Source of the DNA: Dorea formicigenerans
Lineage (GTDB): Bacteria > Bacillota > Clostridia > Lachnospirales > Lachnospiraceae
Direction of reading: 5' to 3'
DNA length: 64,000 nt
Assembly: GCF_025150245.1 (NCBI RefSeq)
Contig: NZ_CP102279.1
Coordinates: 2,725,423-2,789,422 of the forward strand
The position numbers and the translations under genes are program-made. Positions 1 to 24,500 of this stretch are shown in pieces (position 1 is the stretch's first letter; each line of letters starts with the position of its first letter). The notes under the pieces are model-generated. The model searched no databases. It was given only the letters and a program-made list of their open reading frames with translations, and was not told where the DNA came from.

Positions 1-410
<410 letters not shown>

Positions 411-484
411 TCACTTCTTTGATCAGCAACATATTTATTTCGTTATTTATTTAACCCTTCACGCTACATTGTATATGAATTGCC

Positions 485-3400
485 TTAGCTTTTCAATGGT
501 TTTTCCACCACTTTTACGCAAGATTCACCAAAATAATTCATAAGCCTGCTTAGCAATCCAGGTTCTATATTCACATTTCGGTTAGATGGAAGGCGTTTTA
601 CCGCCCGCTCTGCCTTACAATATACTATAACTTCATCATTTCCATCAGAAGATGCAAGCATATCATATAGCATCTTCTCTCCCTGAAGAAATGTTTCTTT
701 ATCCGGATACTGGATCCAGAGTTCCTGTTTCTTCTGTCCAAATGGAATAACTTTCTCACAGATCAGTTTGCTGGAGGCTTCATCCTCTTCTGACACCCGT
801 CCCTTAACAAAGACAACATTTTCCTCTTCCAGATATTGATGATAGCGCTCATAATCTCTTGGGAATACAACGACTTCTACTGATCCCATAATATCTTCGA
901 TCGTCAGGAAACACATGGTCTTATTATTCTTCGTGTATTTGATTGTCTTGCTCGCAATGATTCCACCAATGATCTCTGCTGCGCCATCACTGACTCTTGA
1001 AAATCCCAATTCCTCATCAAACTGGAAATCCTGTGTCGTTTTGGAAATGCCTTTTCTCCACTGCTCCTCGTACTCTTCCATCGGATGTCCGCTTAAGTAG
1101 ATTCCAAGCACTTCTTTTTCGAAAGCAAGTTTCGTAGACTTCTCGTATTCACCTACATTTGGCAGCGGAATATCGAACTCGGATTTCTGTTCTTCTCCTA
1201 CAATATCAAAAAGAGTCATCTGACCTGTCATGGAATTTTTCTTCTCCCGGTTCACCTGGTCGAGAATCTGTACATAGATGACCATGAATTGCTTTCTTGT
1301 TCCTCCAAGTTCGTCAAATGCACCGGATTTGATAAAGTTCTCAATCGTTCTCTTATTGATATCTTTTCCTGACATCCGCTCAATGAAATCTTTCAGATTC
1401 TTAAACTCTCCGTTTGCTTTCCGCTCTGCAACAATTTCTTTGATGACTGGTCTGCCGATGCTCTTGATCGCTGCCAGTCCGTACCGGATACTTCCATTAT
1501 CTACAGAAAAGCTGCTGTAACCATGGTTAATGTCCGGCGGCAGAATCTTGATTCCCATCTGGCGGCAACTGTAAATGTACTCGGCTACCTTTCCTGGATT
1601 ATCAATGACTGAGGTCATAAGAGCTGCCATATACTCTACTGGATAATAATATTTGAGCCATGCTGTCTGGTAAGAAACGACCGCATATGCTGCCGCATGG
1701 GATTTGTTAAACGCATACTTGGCAAAATCTGTCATTTCATCATAAATCTTATTGGCAGTCTTCTCGTCAATACCATTTGCAATACAGCCTGGTACACCTT
1801 CCTCTGGATTTCCGTACACAAAATTCTGGCGTTCCTTTGCCATGACATCGGCTTTCTTCTTAGACATAGCGCGGCGCACAAGGTCGCTTCGTCCAAGTGT
1901 ATATCCTGCCAGATCACGCACAATCTGCATAACCTGCTCCTGATAGACGATACAGCCATAAGTTGGCGACAGGATCGGCTCTAGCTGTGGGCAGTCATAG
2001 GTGATCAGCTCCGGATGTTCTTTTCCTTTAATATACTGAGGGATAAAATCCATCGGCCCCGGACGATACAGAGAAATTCCGGCGATAATATCTTCCAGAC
2101 TCTGCGGTTTCAGCTCTTTCATAAAGTTCTTCATTCCTGCGCTCTCTAACTGGAACACACCGTCTGTCTTTCCCGTTCCAATAGAATCCAGTACTGCTTT
2201 ATCGTCAAAATTAATCTTGTTAATGTTGATCTCTTTTCCGGAACTGTAGCTTGCAAACTTCTCTGCATCCCGGATCACCGTCAAGGTGCGAAGCCCCAGA
2301 AAGTCCATTTTCAAAAGTCCCAGCTCTTCCAGCGTGGTCGCTACGAACTGAGTCGTTACAGATCCATCTGATCCAAGTGACAGCGGCACATATTCTTCTA
2401 CCGGCTTCTGGCTGATAACAACTCCGGCTGCATGCATGGAAGTATGTCTTGGAAGTCCTTCCAGACGCATGGACATGTCAATCAGTTCTTTTACCTGTGG
2501 GTCTTCCTCATAGGACTTTCGAAGTTCTGAACTGGTCTTGAGTGCCTTATCCAAAGTAATATTCAGCTCCTTCGGAATAAGCTTCGCTATATTATCTACA
2601 AATGCATACGGCAGATCCATCACACGTCCTACATCCCGAATCACACCTCTGGCAGCCAGTGTACCAAATGTGACGATCTGAACGACTCGGTCTGCGCCGT
2701 ACTTTCTTCCTACATAGTCGATCACTTCCTGACGCCTCTCGTAACAGAAATCCACGTCAATATCGGGCATGGACACACGCTCCGGATTCAGGAAACGTTC
2801 GAACAGAAGCTGGTATTTAATCGGATCAATACTTGTAATCTCCAGACAATACGCCACAATACTTCCGGCACCGGAACCACGTCCCGGTCCGACCATAATC
2901 TTCTGTGACCTTGCATAGTGAATAAAATCCCACACAATCAGGAAATAATCGACATAGCCCATCTTGTGAATAACTGACAGTTCATAGTCCAGTCTGTCTT
3001 TCAAATCCTGTGAAGGATTCGGGTAACGTCTTTCCAGCCCTTCGTAACACAATTTGTTCAAATATTCCCAGGAGGAAAGTCCATCCGGAACATCGTATTT
3101 TGGAAGTTTGGTCACACCAAATTCGATTTCCACGTCACAACGGTCTGCAATCTTCTGTGTGTTCTCAAGAGCCTGCAATGCATATGGGAACAGCTTCTTC
3201 ATTTCCTCTTCTGACTTGATATAATACTGTCCGCCCTCATAGCGCATACGATCCTCGTCTGCCAACTTCTTACCTGTCTGGATACAGAGCAGAATATCGT
3301 GTGCCCGCGCATCTTCTGCATAAGTATAATGTATATCGTTCGTTGCTACCAGTTCAATTCCCGTCTCCTGTGACATGCGCATCAATGCCTGATTGACCGT

Positions 3401-18980: not shown

Positions 18981-19757
18981 ATGAGAGGTACTAATAAGTC
19001 TTGGTTTGCCAAGGGTATGCGGGACGCAATTCCCATTGCCCTTGGCTATCTTGCAGTTTCATTTACCCTTGGTATTGCTGCGAAAAATGCCGGGTTCACA
19101 CCCTTTCAGGCATTTCTCGTAAGTTTTACTAATAATGCATCAGCCGGTGAATTTGCCGGATTTACGCTGATTGCCGCAGGTGGCGGCTATCTGGAGGTCG
19201 CGATTCTGATATTGATCACAAATGCCCGTTATCTTCTGATGTCTTGCGCATTAAGTCAGAAACTTCCACCAGACACACCGATGATCCAGCGTCTGCTTCT
19301 AAGTTATGATGTCACTGATGAGTTATTTGGAATCTCCGTGGCCGTACCGGGTAAATTGAATCCATACTATTCTTTTGGTGCATATACTGTAGCACTTCCC
19401 GGCTGGGCTTTCGGAACACTTTTTGGAACTTTGATGGGATCCATTCTACCGGCTAATATCGTCAGTGCATTAAGTGTCGGTCTTTACGGCATGTTCCTGG
19501 CAATCATTATCCCGCCTGCAAGAAAAAATAAGATTCTTGCGGGCGTTGTCTTGATTTCCATGGGAGCAAGCTTTGCATTTACAAAACTTCCAGTCGTCCA
19601 CACACTTTCTACCGGAACAAGAACGATTCTGCTTACGATTCTCATTGCCGGAGGTGCTGCAATCCTGTTCCCAATCAATGAGGAGGAAGACGATACAAAA
19701 AGCACTGAATCTAGTGTATTAAATAACAATGAAAGGCAGGCAAGTCATGAGTCATAA
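18981..19757 (+). CDS. azlC: AzlC family branched-chain amino acid permease subunit
   Basis: AzlC is the large membrane subunit of the AzlCD exporter, known from Bacillus for branched-chain amino acids and 4-azaleucine. The 258-residue protein has seven or so hydrophobic segments and the family start MRDAIPIALGYLAVSFTLG. It overlaps azlD by 11 bp, the usual arrangement. The C-terminal tail is acidic (NEEEDDT). Substrate is inferred from the family. Confidence 0.9.
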   Translation: MRGTNKSWFAKGMRDAIPIALGYLAVSFTLGIAAKNAGFTPFQAFLVSFTNNASAGEFAGFTLIAAGGGYLEVAILILITNARYLLMSCALSQKLPPDTPMIQRLLLSYDVTDELFGISVAVPGKLNPYYSFGAYTVALPGWAFGTLFGTLMGSILPANIVSALSVGLYGMFLAIIIPPARKNKILAGVVLISMGASFAFTKLPVVHTLSTGTRTILLTILIAGGAAILFPINEEEDDTKSTESSVLNNNERQASHES

Positions 19758-20052
19758 TATTTATATCTATATCCTGGTCATGGCCGGAGTATCTTATCTG
19801 ATCCGTATGCTGCCTCTGACCTTGATTCGAAAAGAAATTAAAAATAAAACGATTCGGTCATTTCTATACTATGTACCATACGTCACACTGGCAGTGATGA
19901 CCTTCCCGGCAATCCTGTCCGCGACCGGAAGTGTCTGGTCTGCATGGGCAGCTCTGATTGTTGCCACAGCACTTGCATGGTTTGGGAAAAGCCTGCTGCA
20001 AGTATCCGTATGCGCATGCATGGTGGTGTTCCTGTTAGAATTGTTTTTGTAA
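19747..20052 (+). CDS. azlD: AzlD family transport subunit
   Basis: The small partner of AzlC, 101 residues with three to four hydrophobic segments. The family motif is YLIRMLPLTLIRKEI near the N-terminus, followed by YYVPYVTLAVMTFPAIL. The ATG at 19747 lies inside the end of azlC, with AAAGGCAGG upstream. The coding end is followed within 20 bp by a long palindrome that probably ends the transcript. Confidence 0.9.
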   Translation: MSHNIYIYILVMAGVSYLIRMLPLTLIRKEIKNKTIRSFLYYVPYVTLAVMTFPAILSATGSVWSAWAALIVATALAWFGKSLLQVSVCACMVVFLLELFL

Positions 20053-20070
20053 AATGGAAAAATTATATAA

Positions 20071-20257
20071 AATTAAAGCAGAAAAAATCCTGTCCTATGA
20101 CACGGGTAAAATTCTATGTCTGCTGCGCCGCTTATCTATGTCTTTCTATGTAAACTCGCCTTACGGCTCAGACAGTACATAGAAAGACATGCTATGCTCG
20201 CAGACATGTCGAATTTTATCCTATCGTCATAGGACAAGACTTTTTCTGTTTTATTTT
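20071..20257. repeat. Long nested palindrome 1 with conserved loop
   Basis: A 187-bp imperfect palindrome between azlD and a symporter remnant. The outer arms (about 20071-20137 and 20191-20257) match at roughly three of four bases. An inner perfect 15-bp stem (20138-20152 with 20176-20190) encloses a 23-nt loop reading AACTCGCCTTACGGCTCAGA plus CAG. U-rich DNA follows on both sides, so it may act as a two-way terminator. The loop is shared with the element at 22702-22916, while the arms are not. Confidence 0.85.
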
Positions 20258-20288
20258 GCGATAAGTCTTTTATATTTTTCTCATATTT

Positions 20289-20727
20289 TTATTTTACATC
20301 TTGCACATACGTGTTTTGTTCGGAACGTTTTTCTGTATGTCTGTTGTCTATCTCTGGCTGGAATGCTTTGATGTCCTGTGCTACTTCTTTACTAAGTATG
20401 AGCATGCAGATCAGGTTCGGGATTGCCATGAGCGCATTTGCTATATCTGAAAAGCTCCATACAAGATTAAGTGTCTGTGTGAAGCCAAGTTCAAGAATGC
20501 TTTTTCTCCATGATATTCCCATCCGAGGATTGTAGAAAATGCAAATAATGTAATCCCGATTGTTACAAGCCAGCACTGTGATCACAATTCCAGTGATCCA
20601 TGTCGGGATATGAAATGTTGCATGCAGTGCACCTGAAATAGAATTTCCCTGTGTCTTATTTCCAATACCAAATGAAGCAATCACTGCAAAGAGTGCAAAC
20701 AACCATGCAAGAGCAGAACCTAATGTC
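20289..20727 (-). pseudogene. AGCS sodium:alanine/glycine symporter remnant
   Basis: A deleted and frameshifted fragment of an AGCS-family amino acid symporter. One frame gives FAVIASFGIGNKTQGNSIS and later [20 protein letters not shown], both characteristic of the family's C-terminal half. Between them a different frame reads [14 protein letters not shown], the conserved motif expected there, so at least two frameshifts are present. The N-terminal half is missing: the fragment begins right at the stop codon of fdhD. An apparently open 137-codon frame is therefore not a real protein. Confidence 0.85.
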
Positions 20728-21540
20728 TTATTCTTTATACAGCGTATATTGCATCATCTTGTGATTCTTCGCTCTTCCAATCATCGTCAATCCATATTCC
20801 TGTGCCAGTTTTACAGCTTCTGCCGTCGGAGTCTTTTTACTTGCCACAAGTGGAATTCCTGCCCGGATTACTTTTGTAATCATGTCAATCGGGAGCCGTC
20901 CGGTCGTAAATACTGCACATTCATGAAAATCATAATCCTGCATAAGTGCATAGCCAATCGCTTTGTCCAGTGCATTATGGCGTCCGATATCCTCACAGGA
21001 ATACACAATCTTTCCCTTATATGCAAGAAAGCAACTGTGTGTTGACCATGTCGCCTCATGCAATGGCATATCCTGATGAAAGGCTTCGTCGAATGCATAC
21101 ATAAGTTCCAGACTAACTTCTACCGGCTCCAGATGCTGCAATTCTTTTTCCACTGCAAATCTACTATATATGGTCTTATTATCCGTACAACAAGTCGGCG
21201 TATCCATAACCTCTGCGCTCAGATTATCATTAACCAATCCACAATGTTCTGAACCAAGCTGTACTCTCGCCCTGGTTCCATGCTCACAGATATAAAGGTA
21301 TTCCACTTCCTCTGATGAATGAATCATGCCTTCGCTGACCATTCGTCCCAGTACCAGCCCCGGCAAATCCTTCGGTGTACACACTAATTTCATCGTCAGC
21401 ACATCATTAATATACACGTCCATACGATGCTCCGATAAAAGCATCTCTGACTTTTCTACAGCATTCCCGTCCGGATCAATATATAATCCTGTAACTGGAT
21501 AAATCGCTTCTGCTTCCTCATATTGATTATTTATCTTCAT
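20728..21540 (-). CDS. fdhD: Formate dehydrogenase accessory sulfurtransferase FdhD
   Basis: FdhD carries sulfur from cysteine desulfurase to the molybdenum or tungsten cofactor of formate dehydrogenase. The 270-residue product has the family motifs CEDIGRHNALDKAIGYA and FTTGRLPIDMITK. The cysteine loop, CxxC in Escherichia coli, is here PTCCTDNKT with two adjacent cysteines. It implies a molybdo- or tungsto-formate dehydrogenase in the genome; none is in the window. A MobA-like enzyme at 59507 may be part of the same cofactor chemistry. Confidence 0.93.
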   Translation of the reverse strand: MKINNQYEEAEAIYPVTGLYIDPDGNAVEKSEMLLSEHRMDVYINDVLTMKLVCTPKDLPGLVLGRMVSEGMIHSSEEVEYLYICEHGTRARVQLGSEHCGLVNDNLSAEVMDTPTCCTDNKTIYSRFAVEKELQHLEPVEVSLELMYAFDEAFHQDMPLHEATWSTHSCFLAYKGKIVYSCEDIGRHNALDKAIGYALMQDYDFHECAVFTTGRLPIDMITKVIRAGIPLVASKKTPTAEAVKLAQEYGLTMIGRAKNHKMMQYTLYKE

Positions 21541-21686
21541 ACCACTTCGTCCTTTTCATACAACATATATTTGACACACACACATATCAGTGTTAATATA
21601 CTTATATAAAAGGTACTGCCAATGGCGATTTACCTGATCATTGTAAATAAAAAATAACCGTATTAGTTTCTCAGGCTAACAGGCGG
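21541..21686. other. Intergenic stretch between fdhD and small ORF
   Basis: About 145 bp, AT-rich, with the fdhD promoter region and the shared AAATAACCG/CGGTTATTT hairpin at its right end. I see no gene in it. Confidence 0.5.
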
Positions 21687-21695
21687 TTATTTTTT
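21654..21695. terminator. Two-way terminator hairpin
   Basis: AAATAACCG pairs with CGGTTATTT around a 24-nt loop, with T-rich DNA on both sides. The stop codon of the 33-residue small ORF lies within the right arm, so the hairpin probably ends that transcript. Confidence 0.7.
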
Positions 21696-21788
21696 TGTGG
21701 TCTTATTGTTACATCCCATTGCATATCCAAGACCAAATGAGGTTAAGCAGAGACTAAGTACTGCAATCAAGTCAGCCATTGTTAGCAT
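21687..21788 (-). CDS. 33-residue hydrophobic small protein
   Basis: Reads MLTMADLIAVLSLCLTSFGL then GYAMGCNNKTTKK. One hydrophobic helix covers residues 4-25, then a short polar, lysine-rich tail. AAGGAG lies nine bases before the ATG and a terminator overlaps the stop codon, so it looks like a compact expressed unit. The shape, a single membrane helix with a basic tail, is that of type I toxins and of small holin-like peptides. No antitoxin RNA promoter was confirmed. Function is unknown. Confidence 0.55.
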   Translation of the reverse strand: MLTMADLIAVLSLCLTSFGLGYAMGCNNKTTKK

Positions 21789-21897
21789 AAGTATGTTCTC
21801 CTTTCCATAATAGTTCATCGTCCGAATCATCTATGTAATCAGAGCTATAGACTCCCTGTAAAAAATAAACCGCCAGACACACCAGTGCTGACAGCAC
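21772..21897 (-). CDS. Possible 41-residue small membrane ORF (GTG start)
   Basis: An open frame overlapping the start of the 33-residue ORF in another frame. It reads VLSALVCLAVYFLQGVYSSD, then an acidic stretch and WKGEHTYANNG. The initiator would be GTG with only TAAG upstream, so translation is doubtful. If made, it would be a single-span membrane peptide coupled to the next ORF. It could equally be a leader with no product. Confidence 0.25.
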   Translation of the reverse strand: MLSALVCLAVYFLQGVYSSDYIDDSDDELLWKGEHTYANNG

Positions 21898-21990
21898 CTT
21901 ACATTTATTGTATCAATTCTATGCTTTTCATGCAATACTTTTGTATATTTTTAAGATATATTATTTGTCTAAAAATAAACGAATCATTTT

Positions 21991-22656
21991 TTATATCTTT
22001 TCCAACGCCGCCATCGGTGTCTCTAGCTGTTCAAACTTCTCTTTTCGGATATCCAGTTCCGGCACCTCTTTGATGTACCACCGTGCCTGAAGCGCAGTCA
22101 TTCCCATAATATCTGCCGCTTCCAGTTCATGGCTCCCGCCATCTCCGATGTACAAACATTCTCCGGCTCTCACTCCAAGCCCTTCCATACACTTTAGGAA
22201 TATTTCCGGATCTGGCTTTTTCATTCCCAGTTCATAAGACAAACATGTCTCATCAAAATATGGAAATAACTGGCTTTCCCGGATCAATACCGCTTCCTCA
22301 GAATAACAGTTACTAATCAGTCCGATTTTAATCTTTTTTTCTTTTAATGCCTGAAGCATCGGAATAATTTCCGGGTGAAGATGACAAAAACAGTCTGCTT
22401 TTGCTACCTTTCTTCCAGAAATAATAGTCTGGAATGTCTCCTCGCTGTATTTTCCGGTCTGTCTCAATATCTGCTCAATTGTCTCTTCCAATGTCTGCTT
22501 TCCAATGGTCCGGTCATTCTCACTCGGAATCCAAAGTGCATCAAATAACACCGGATCTATACCGGCATCTGCTGCCATCTGCGCCCGGAAATATACCGGT
22601 CCGCCATACTGTGTAATCAAGGTCTCATACATATCAAAAATAACTGCTTTTATCAT
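21991..22656 (-). CDS. HAD family hydrolase (haloacid dehalogenase-like)
   Basis: A 221-residue HAD phosphatase or dehalogenase-like enzyme. Motif I is VIFDMYETL, with Tyr at the position of the second aspartate as in the L-2-haloacid dehalogenase group. Motif II is ISNCYSE and motif IV GDGGSHELEAA. A helical C1 cap lies at about 20-90. The ATG at 22656 has AAGGAG six bases away. A second long palindrome separates it from mgtE upstream. Substrate unknown. Confidence 0.85.
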   Translation of the reverse strand: MIKAVIFDMYETLITQYGGPVYFRAQMAADAGIDPVLFDALWIPSENDRTIGKQTLEETIEQILRQTGKYSEETFQTIISGRKVAKADCFCHLHPEIIPMLQALKEKKIKIGLISNCYSEEAVLIRESQLFPYFDETCLSYELGMKKPDPEIFLKCMEGLGVRAGECLYIGDGGSHELEAADIMGMTALQARWYIKEVPELDIRKEKFEQLETPMAALEKI

Positions 22657-22701
22657 AAATATCTCCTTTTTAGTTAAATTACTCTCTCTTACCACCACCT
22701 T

Positions 22702-22916
22702 GCGAAGTAAGAAAATATAAAACCCGCCGGATACCAATTTTGTACTAATTGTAGCATTTTAGGATATTTTACAAGTCTAGCGACATAAAAATCCAACTGT
22801 TTGAGCTCTGCGAGTTTTTGGATTTTTATGTCAATAGGCGATGCAGTAAAATGTTCTAAAATCTACATAGTAAAAAATTGGTATCCAGCGGGTTCCATTA
22901 TATTTCCTTACCCCGC
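22702..22916. repeat. Long nested palindrome 2 with conserved loop
   Basis: A 215-bp imperfect palindrome that starts in the leader of the HAD gene and ends inside the last codons of mgtE. Outer arms (22702-22781 with 22833-22916) match at roughly four of five bases. The inner perfect 15-bp stem (22782-22796 with 22818-22832) encloses the loop CTGTTTGAGCTCTGCGAGTT plus T. Read along the mgtE transcript the loop is AAACTCGC...GCTCAAACAG, almost the same as palindrome 1 read along azlD. Confidence 0.85.
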
Positions 22917-24302
22917 AAGATGCAACATCTCAATAAGGAAAATCCAGCTCAGTCCATAGTAAGTCACAACTGCTACCAGGTCATTGATGGTCGTGATCAA
23001 TGGTCCGGATGCTACAGCCGGATCAACATTAATTTTCTTAAAGAACAGCGGAATACATGTTCCGACTGCCCCGGAAATGACCATCGCAACTACAAGTGCT
23101 ATTCCGATGCAGCCTGAAACTGCATAAGCGAACATAAAAGTCTTTCCTTTAAAGAGTGCAATATAAAGTCCGATTACAATAAATGACAATGTTCCCAGAA
23201 TCAGACCGTTCGAAAATCCGATTGTCATTTCCTTCCATACTAATTCTGCCTTCTGTTTTCCGGTCAGGGACTCGTCCATCAGAACACGGATTGTTACGGC
23301 CAGTGACTGTGTTCCCACATTTCCTGCCATATCCAGGATCAGTGACTGGAAACACATAATAATCGTAAGCTGACTTACAACTGTCTCAAATACACCAACT
23401 ACTGATGAAACAACCATGCCAAGTCCTAACAATACCAGCAGCCACGGAAGTCTCTTTTTCAGGCTCTCACGCAGAGGCTCTTTCAAATCTTCCTCCGCTG
23501 TCAGACCGGCAAACATTGCGTAGTCCTCTCCCATCTCGTCATCGACCAATTCTACGATGCTCTGAGATGTGATAACTCCAAGCAATTTGTTATCATTATC
23601 CAGTACCGGAATGGAATTCTCGGAATAATCTTTCAGCTTTTCAATACAATCATCTATCAGTTCATTTCCATATACATATGGGTATGATGTCACAATCAGA
23701 TCTTCCAGACATGCATCCTGTCTTGCAATAATCAAATCTTTCAAATCTAATGCTCCGTAAAATGTGGAATCTTCTGTCACCATAAATATAGTAGAAATGT
23801 TATCGTTCTTTGCTGCCTGACCGATTAAGCTGCTCATTGCCTGCTTTACAGTCAGATTCTCACGGATCATGATGCAGTTAGTTGTCATCTTACTTCCGAT
23901 TTCTTCCTCGTCAAATGAAGCAATGATTGCCATATCTTTTCTCGCCTCATCATCCATCAGCTCGATCAAAAGTACTTTTTTCTCCTTCGGTGTCATACGG
24001 AGAACATCTACAACGGCATCTGTCTCCATTCCTGAAAGAATACCCGCTGCCTTACGCACATCCATCTCATCCAGATACTCTGCTGCCTGTTTCTCATCAA
24101 TATACTCGAAAATGTCTGAAAGCATATCCAGGTTCAGAATTCTGCAGACTTTCCGTCTCTCTGCTGCTGTCAGCTCGGAAAATACATCTGCCAGGTCATT
24201 TTCATGATAATCCTCCAGTTTGTTACGCATAACTCCCGGTGAAGTATTACCTCTGATGATAGCCAAGATTTCTGACTGATAATCCTGTGTTTTGTTTTCC
24301 AT
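22908..24302 (-). CDS. mgtE: Magnesium transporter MgtE
   Basis: MgtE is a Mg2+-gated magnesium channel of the plasma membrane. The 464-residue product shows the order expected: N-terminal superhelical domain (about 1-130, with ENDLADVFSEL), a CBS pair (about 130-260) that senses cytosolic Mg2+, a plug helix and five membrane segments. The pore region carries DMAGNVGTQSLAV. The ATG at 24302 has AAGGAGG nine bases before it. A ~380-nt leader with a short ORF and an intrinsic terminator lies upstream, suggesting attenuation by Mg2+. The last codons overlap the arm of palindrome 2. Confidence 0.95.
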   Translation of the reverse strand: MENKTQDYQSEILAIIRGNTSPGVMRNKLEDYHENDLADVFSELTAAERRKVCRILNLDMLSDIFEYIDEKQAAEYLDEMDVRKAAGILSGMETDAVVDVLRMTPKEKKVLLIELMDDEARKDMAIIASFDEEEIGSKMTTNCIMIRENLTVKQAMSSLIGQAAKNDNISTIFMVTEDSTFYGALDLKDLIIARQDACLEDLIVTSYPYVYGNELIDDCIEKLKDYSENSIPVLDNDNKLLGVITSQSIVELVDDEMGEDYAMFAGLTAEEDLKEPLRESLKKRLPWLLVLLGLGMVVSSVVGVFETVVSQLTIIMCFQSLILDMAGNVGTQSLAVTIRVLMDESLTGKQKAELVWKEMTIGFSNGLILGTLSFIVIGLYIALFKGKTFMFAYAVSGCIGIALVVAMVISGAVGTCIPLFFKKINVDPAVASGPLITTINDLVAVVTYYGLSWIFLIEMLHLAG

Positions 24303-24500
24303 CTTGGGAAACCTCCTTATCCTGTTTTCTAATTTCCGCAAGAAGCACAAAAATTAAAACATCAAGAGACACTTTAGCTGTTGACATTAAAATCTTTATC
24401 CTTCTTGCATCTGTTTTTCACAGATCAGATAGCTGCATTTTTATGCATATGTTCGCTCATTGGAAAATAGGATAAGAAATGAATTGATAAATTCTATTTA

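What the first reader, a model, noticed from the sequence alone, without database searches (positions are those of the whole stretch)
20071..22916. Two ~200-bp nested palindromes share one loop but not their arms
Seen: both elements have outer arms, a perfect 15-bp inner stem and a 21-23-nt loop. The stems are unrelated in sequence, but the loops nearly match: CTGTCTGAGC..GCGAGTT and CTGTTTGAGC..GCGAGTTT. Both loops point the same way relative to the upstream transporter gene (azlD, mgtE). In element 2 an arm includes the last codons and stop of mgtE, as if host sequence had been copied in inverted form. Inference: a repeat family with a fixed core and locus-made arms, acting as a 3'-end RNA structure, perhaps made by template switching.
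Basis: partly seen in the sequence, partly recalled or inferred. Interest (0 to 1): 0.8.

Follow-up and report, generated by a model that had tools for sequence, protein, structure and literature searches.

The report
Fixed-loop hairpin repeats behind genes
Two large DNA hairpins in this window belong to a scattered family, also found in other bacterial groups, whose loop stays fixed while its two arms tend to change in step as mirror images, probably because DNA copying uses one arm as a template for the other.

Summary
In detail: both elements are strong nested hairpins (z -12.5 and -15.3). They belong to a repeat family with 7 exact-core copies and 17 model matches in this genome. The exact core is in 15 of 144 other relatives (one lacks a hairpin), and hairpin-borne cores occur in several phyla. 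In 11 of 17 copies here the element sits directly behind a stop codon, always in one orientation.

The arms do not look made afresh from host DNA at each insertion. In 17 hand-picked orthologous pairs, double changes that keep pairing number 76 and one-sided changes 72; about 3 such doubles are expected if arms changed independently. The excess is strong in one genus (71 versus 45) and weak in Acidithiobacillus (5 versus 27). Mirrored changes are mostly transversions. In 6 of 17 pairs the core is inverted relative to its flanks. This fits template switching between arms. At element 2 the palindrome seems to have grown into mgtE.

Most likely an unnamed REP-like repeat, spread by an unknown factor; RAYT transposases are not linked to it. 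No Rfam family matches above its cut-off, and the literature listings I saw held no description.

The parts
20051..20276 (.). Element 1: nested palindrome whose foot begins at the azlD stop codon
20153..20175 (-). Element 1 conserved loop CTGTCTGAGCCGTAAGGCGAGTT
20138..20152 (.). Element 1 inner stem, one arm (perfect 15 bp)
20176..20190 (.). Element 1 inner stem, other arm
20192..20201 (-). Element 1 second conserved internal loop, 5' side (GCGAGCATAG on the - strand)
   Evidence: coordinates read
20122..20135 (-). Element 1 second conserved internal loop, 3' side (ATAAGCGGCGCAGC on the - strand)
   Evidence: coordinates read
20051..20101 (.). Element 1 outer arm (51 nt, 76% complementary to 20226-20276)
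20226..20276 (.). Element 1 outer arm, partner
22699..22921 (.). Element 2: nested palindrome between the HAD-hydrolase gene and mgtE (stretch as folded)
22797..22817 (+). Element 2 conserved loop CTGTTTGAGCTCTGCGAGTTT
22782..22796 (.). Element 2 inner stem, one arm (perfect 15 bp)
22818..22832 (.). Element 2 inner stem, other arm
22771..22780 (+). Element 2 second internal loop, 5' side (ACAAGTCTAG, diverged form)
   Evidence: coordinates read
22834..22847 (+). Element 2 second internal loop, 3' side (ATAGGCGATGCAGT)
   Evidence: coordinates read
22721..22747 (.). Element 2 outer arm (27 nt, 93% complementary to 22868-22894)
22868..22894 (.). Element 2 outer arm, partner
22699..22720 (.). Outermost left arm of element 2: mirror of the mgtE end
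22895..22919 (.). Outermost right arm of element 2: includes last codons and stop (22908-22910) of mgtE
19729..20052 (+). azlD (Pfam AzlD), gene upstream of element 1
22908..24350 (-). mgtE (Pfam MgtE, MgtE_N, CBS), gene upstream of element 2

Best explanation
Both elements belong to a dispersed, REP-like family of long DNA hairpins that often lies directly behind stop codons. The conserved, presumably recognised part is the folded core: the loop CTGTYTGA-[small stem]-GAGTT plus further internal loops. The arms are inherited and kept self-complementary mainly by replication template switching: a change in one arm is copied into the other, the core can be inverted, and the palindrome can grow into host sequence, as at mgtE. 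Shown: the family, its position, mirrored changes above an independence estimate, cores inverted between orthologs (draft assemblies), and an ancestral mgtE end in one arm. Inferred: that template switching rather than compensatory selection is the cause, and that the core spreads as non-autonomous mobile DNA through an unidentified factor. A side effect as terminator or 3'-end stabiliser is plausible but untested.
For: Family and position: 7 exact-core copies in the genome, 0 for the reversed pattern; 17 covariance-model matches here, the 7 training copies included, and at least 73 in G015; 31 of 41 predicted stem pairs have a both-sides change in at least one of 7 copies; 11 of 17 copies have their right end within -15 to +42 bp of a stop codon, same orientation. 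Mirroring: 76 mirrored, 3 other double and 72 one-sided changes at 1,565 paired positions in 17 pairs; about 3 complementary doubles expected under independence. Mirrored changes are 44 transversions and 34 transitions, one-sided 26 and 44, so G-U intermediates are not the main route. In 39 Acidithiobacillus copies median within-copy arm complementarity is 0.96 (mean 0.78), between-copy arm identity 0.54, core identity 0.93. Core inverted relative to flanks in 6 of 17 pairs. Template switching is reported to homogenise arms and invert spacers (PMC8604942, abstract) and to make compensatory pairs (PMC8794818, passages). mgtE: homologues end at about the same place.
Against: In Acidithiobacillus pairs mirrored changes are few (5 versus 27 one-sided, about 0.3 expected) and arms are mostly as conserved as flanks. 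No mobilising enzyme was found: no protein family near more than 3 of 45 loci; RAYT genes neither track nor flank the elements. No clean empty site was recovered. Compensatory selection would also give mirrored changes. 59 of 67 mirrored runs are single bases, not tracts. Clustered GU-type mismatches lean to the core strand (202 versus 173; G015/G145 33 versus 11). Core inversions and long perfect arms in draft genomes could be assembly errors. The orientation bias sits uneasily with free core inversion.
Confidence: 0.55

Rival explanations
1. Structured RNA under selection: the hairpin is a transcribed 3'-end RNA (terminator or stabiliser), and mirrored changes are compensatory mutations fixed by selection for base pairing.
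For: Position behind stop codons; strong covariation; conserved unpaired loops kept while stems change (108 unchanged mismatched positions); 5' outer arm purine-rich in 65 of 65 G015/G145 and 5 of 5 own-genome copies measured, weaker in the other groups; clustered GU-type mismatches lean to the core strand, 202 versus 173.
Against: No clear strand bias of isolated GU-type mismatches, 77 versus 70, and the core strand is the antisense one; mirrored changes mostly transversions; a coreless derivative keeps arms that look perfect (L456); neither element is called by a simple terminator scan, which allows loops of 3-8 only; most relatives lack the exact core.
Confidence: 0.27
2. Arms are made at insertion: each new copy captures host DNA on one side and copies it in inverted form to the other, so arms are locus-made.
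For: Outer arms differ between loci while cores are similar; an arm of element 2 mirrors the mgtE end.
Against: Arms of orthologous copies are mostly alignable and co-vary. The exact Acidithiobacillus arm consensus occurs only beside core sequence, 10 of 10 hits. In G015/G145 many variable arms have similar end sequences outside them (by eye).
Confidence: 0.1
3. The element inserts into the loop of pre-existing palindromes such as intrinsic terminators or REPs, so arms are the old stems.
For: Arms lie where terminators lie, behind stop codons; many Acidithiobacillus arms have an A-tract, GC stem and T-tract (by eye).
Against: No solo arms among the 10 exact hits of the arm consensus in G146/G147; arms of 98-204 nt per side, core stems included, in the G015/G145 copies are long for terminators.
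Confidence: 0.08

Closest known systems
REP (repetitive extragenic palindromic) elements, GTAG and CGTC families, with RAYT transposases
   Same: Extragenic palindromes in many copies, mostly downstream of coding regions, often in inverted pairs, in several phyla (PMC3733652, abstract and one section seen).
   Different: REPs are given as 20-40 bp with a GTAG or CGTC tag; here arms are mostly 70-200 nt per side, with a different fixed loop in the middle, mirrored variable arms, and no RAYT found beside the elements.
Template-switch mutations in quasi-palindromes
   Same: Arm homogenisation and spacer inversion (PMC8604942, abstract; PMC8794818, passages).
   Different: The cases I saw there are yeast coding genes, a microRNA and rRNA stems; here it would act on a dispersed repeat family and leave a conserved, mismatched core intact.
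Intrinsic (rho-independent) terminators
   Same: Hairpin just behind stop codons, sometimes with A-tract and T-tract arms.
   Different: Far longer, with conserved unpaired loops shared between phyla; a simple terminator scan, limited to short loops, calls neither element.
TIRs of TIRYT (RAYT-like) elements
   Same: Moderately abundant inverted-repeat families (PMC3733652, section on tyrosine transposases).
   Different: Those flank a transposase gene; of 13 Y1-transposase loci examined here (10 with long reading frames) none carried the exact core.

Membership tests
REP elements | Palindrome of 20-40 bp | tested here: not met
   Arms mostly about 70-200 nt per side
REP elements | Unpaired GTAG or CGTC tag at one end | tested here: inconclusive
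   By eye: GTAG-like GYAGG at the left foot of many G015/G145 copies, not evident in own-genome or Acidithiobacillus copies
REP elements | Extragenic, mostly downstream of genes | tested here: met
   11 of 17 own copies abut a stop codon; within 60 bp a stop codon faces the element in 74 instances and a start in 24, over 133 copies (recounted)
REP elements | Inverted pairs | tested here: met
   Divergent (- then +) pairs within about 500 bp: 3 in G000 and 3 in G015; 1 tandem pair in G000; no + then - pair that close among the places listed
REP elements (GTAG type) | Associated RAYT transposase | tested here: not met
   Y1_Tnp in a frame of at least 220 aa: 9 of 16 genomes with and 5 of 17 without the exact core; no exact core in 13 Y1 loci, 10 of them long-frame, one 3-mismatch match; G148 has 29 element matches and no Y1_Tnp hit
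Known Rfam RNA family | Covariance-model match above gathering score | tested here: not met
   No match over an element above gathering score; miRNA-precursor matches below it over L049 and L020 elements
Intrinsic terminator | GC stem, short loop, directly followed by a T-run | tested here: not met
   Neither element called; termination itself not testable here
Template-switch-maintained palindrome | Mirrored arm changes in excess, and spacer inversion | tested here: met
   strong in G015/G145, weak in Acidithiobacillus; causation inferred

The most novel reading that the evidence does not exclude
The folded core is the recognition unit of an undescribed mobile system shared across phyla: an enzyme acting on hairpin DNA (or its transcript) spreads it to gene 3' ends, and the element uses host template switching to keep renewing its arms, so it stays a long hairpin while its sequence drifts freely and escapes homology-based recognition.
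Probability: 0.25. Interest if true: 0.85.

Novelty: new variant of a known kind. Interest (0 to 1): 0.6.

Why it matters
If right, it is a natural, many-copy record of template-switch evolution in bacteria: the core stays while long arms are rewritten in step. That gives many replicate sites per genome in which to measure how palindromes are made perfect, inverted, grown and lost. It also warns that covariation alone (31 of 41 pairs with a both-sides change) need not mean RNA-level selection. And it points to a repeat family, unnamed in the listings I saw, with no known mobiliser, that sits where transcripts end.

Tried and rejected
RAYT/HUH mobilisation: tested in 33 and 30 genomes and at 13 Y1 loci; not supported. 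Recurrent neighbour protein: comparison of open frames in 45 loci gave no group in more than 3 loci. Rfam. Copies of one G015 element in annotated phages and plasmids: none by blastn. Viral contigs: 7 of 121 core matches sit in a hairpin scoring at least 34, against 44 of 117 in genome contigs and 4 of 1,500 random positions. Arms made at insertion, or old palindromes entered by the core: see rivals.

Literature: I saw no description of the family, but mostly in capped listings: 15 of 33 papers listed; 0 found; 15 of 1,133; 40 of 364, ten-base strings, none looked relevant; 20 of 30; 12 of 38; 0 found; 6 of 7; 6 of 61. Papers opened: PMC3733652 (abstract, outline, one section), PMC8794818 (passages), PMC8604942 (abstract, outline).

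Limits of the counts. The 17 ortholog pairs were picked by hand from the flank matches; the rest were left out as repeat-driven or ambiguous. One search uses 16 of the same pairs and replaces L409/L385 by L459/L062. Two pairs (L448/L036, L442/L038) have low core identity (0.81, 0.75) and may not be the same insertion. L077/L046 has 97-99% identical flanks and no changes. One search counts 78 mirrored and 70 one-sided changes where one search counts 76 and 72, because the pairing choice differs; one search set aside 280 positions that did not align. One search left out the 10 G148 loci. In one search only 74 candidates per genome were scored under stricter filters, so 73 in G015 is a lower bound; G010, with 5 exact cores, gave no model match, so the model reaches only near subfamilies. 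In one search the match in G076 (L017) lies in no hairpin. Gene calls are mechanical open frames. Confidence in the best explanation was lowered from 0.6 to 0.55, and that of the RNA rival raised to 0.27, on recounting Acidithiobacillus apart; the rival that arms are old palindromes was lowered from 0.1 to 0.08 on checking the solo-arm hits.
Full report
What is there. The window is bases 2,725,423-2,789,422 of a 3.19-Mb single-contig genome. Element 1 lies behind azlD and element 2 behind mgtE. Both are nested palindromes around a loop that reads CTGTYTGAGC..GCGAGTT on the strand antisense to the upstream gene. They fold far better than shuffled sequence (z -12.49 and -15.30).

The exact core occurs 7 times in the genome and the reversed control pattern 0 times; all 7 sit in palindromes. 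Aligned, the copies share a second internal loop, GCGAGCATAG on the 5' side and ATAAGCGGCGCAGC on the 3' side, with some divergence. Inside the loop a small stem varies between genomes (GCGAAGC, GCCTCGAAGAGGC and others). RNAalifold places 41 pairs, 31 of them with a both-sides change in at least one copy. A covariance model from these 7 copies finds 17 matches here, the 7 included, and at least 73 in G015; the other 39 genomes searched gave none, though one of them, G010, has 5 exact cores of another subfamily. The exact core is in 16 of 145 genomes counting this one, so in 15 of 144 others, and in one of these (G076) it lies in no hairpin. The distribution is patchy.

Beyond this family. Of 117 core matches in genome contigs with enough flank, 44 lie in a hairpin scoring at least 34; of 1,500 random positions 4 do; of 121 viral matches 7 do. 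Titles of hairpin-bearing records listed include Clostridium, Lachnospiraceae, Bacteroidaceae, Flavobacteriales, Burkholderiales, Acidithiobacillus, Desulfobacterales, Nitrospirae and Patescibacteria/Parcubacteria (scores). A second motif, CTTAGAA or TTTAGAA on the 3' side, is present in 9 of 41 hairpin-borne cores and 0 of 72 others. That supports common descent for part of the set, not for all of it.

Position. In 11 of the 17 own-genome copies the right end of the palindrome (core-strand sense) lies within -15 to +42 bp of the stop codon of a gene on the opposite strand; the equivalent on the left side was seen once. Over 133 copies in five groups a stop codon faces the element within 60 bp 52 times on the right and 22 times on the left, and a start codon 24 times (recounted). 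In G015/G145 the tendency is weaker: 27 stop-facing instances over 67 copies. Adjacent copies within about 500 bp are divergent (- then +) in 3 cases in G000 and 3 in G015, with one tandem case. That is expected if each of two convergent genes has its own element.

The arms. Between loci the arms look unrelated. Two genera with many copies show more. In Acidithiobacillus (G146, G147) 39 copies have a median arm complementarity of 0.96 within a copy (mean 0.78), arm identity of 0.54 between copies and core identity of 0.93 between copies. The exact arm-consensus pattern gave 10 hits, 9 beside a full core and 1 beside a 20-nt core remnant, so arms do not look like old palindromes that the core entered. 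In G015 versus G145, 10 of 12 pairs keep core identity of 0.90 or more (two have 0.81 and 0.75). Apart from one identical pair, outer arms fall to 0.67-0.93, while each copy's own arms stay 0.90-0.99 complementary. Best flank identity in these pairs is 0.79-1.00, so arms are less conserved than flanks in some pairs and alike in others. L459 versus L062 is a clear case: core 0.96, outer arms 0.73-0.75, each copy's arms 0.94-0.99 complementary, outer ends conserved. In Acidithiobacillus orthologs the arms are mostly as conserved as the flanks.

Counting changes. Over 17 hand-picked ortholog pairs and 1,565 paired positions, 76 positions changed on both sides with pairing kept, 3 changed on both sides otherwise, and 72 changed on one side. 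If arms changed independently at the observed rate, about 8 double changes and about 3 complementary ones would be expected. Split by genus: G015/G145 71 mirrored to 45 one-sided, Acidithiobacillus 5 to 27, where about 0.3 is expected. Mirrored changes concentrate in the outer arms (61 mirrored and 35 one-sided from position 55 outward; 15 and 37 inside). They are 44 transversions to 34 transitions, while one-sided changes are 26 to 44. Isolated GU-type mismatches are split 77 to 70 between the strands; clustered ones 202 to 173. On balance this fits copying of one arm from the other better than stepwise compensation through G-U pairs on one RNA strand, but selection on pairing is not excluded. 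In 6 of 17 pairs the core is inverted relative to its flanks, which template switching is reported to cause (PMC8604942 abstract; PMC8794818 passages). Draft assemblies may flip such cores by error, so this needs long reads. A coreless derivative in G145 (L456) looks like a perfect palindrome where G015 (L049) has a full element. Several G146 copies look like deletions at short repeats.

Host sequence in an arm. The last codons of mgtE (..HLAG stop) are in the outermost right arm of element 2. In 7 of 9 homologues that the script could read, the protein ends within a few residues of the same place (..MLHITG..MLHVA..MLHIA and others). So this side looks ancestral and the left arm its mirror.

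Mobility. Dispersed similar cores, patchy distribution, and four loci with both flanks matched and an element in G015 but not in G145 (L035/L457, L043/L462, L076/L458, L078/L465) argue for gain and loss. A fifth, L045/L463, matched on one flank only. No exact target was recovered. No partner gene recurs near the elements, and Y1 transposases do not track them. The mobiliser is unknown.

Verdict. A real, widespread repeat family, undescribed in the listings I saw, REP-like in kind, whose arms tend to evolve in mirror image, most likely by template switching.

Noticed in passing
window 20289-20702 (-): An open frame behind element 1 resembles a decayed sodium:alanine symporter (recalled resemblance, not searched).
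   Followed up: no
window 21649-21695: A perfect 12-bp hairpin (AAAAAATAACCG/CGGTTATTTTTT, 23-nt loop) followed by a T-run, terminator-like by eye.
   Followed up: no
L075 positions 200-900 (reverse strand); similar stretches in L051, L073, L077, L058: Another palindromic repeat family in G015/G145, in direct and inverted copies, without the present core.
   Followed up: no
L339 992-1098; L345 1303-1384 and 2183-2354: RAYT-like genes in G004 and G080 lie beside hairpins rich in CCCGTCCCC, which look like their own REPs, different from the present element.
   Followed up: partly
L087, L107, L199, L265, L267, L276, L300 just beyond the element: In these loci the element is followed, by eye, by a second hairpin of the type TTCTTTCTTG..CAAGAAAGAA.
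   Followed up: no
G015/G145 copies: The 5' outer arm is purine-rich in 65 of 65 copies measured, so the arms carry a composition bias although their sequence drifts; weaker in other groups.
   Followed up: partly
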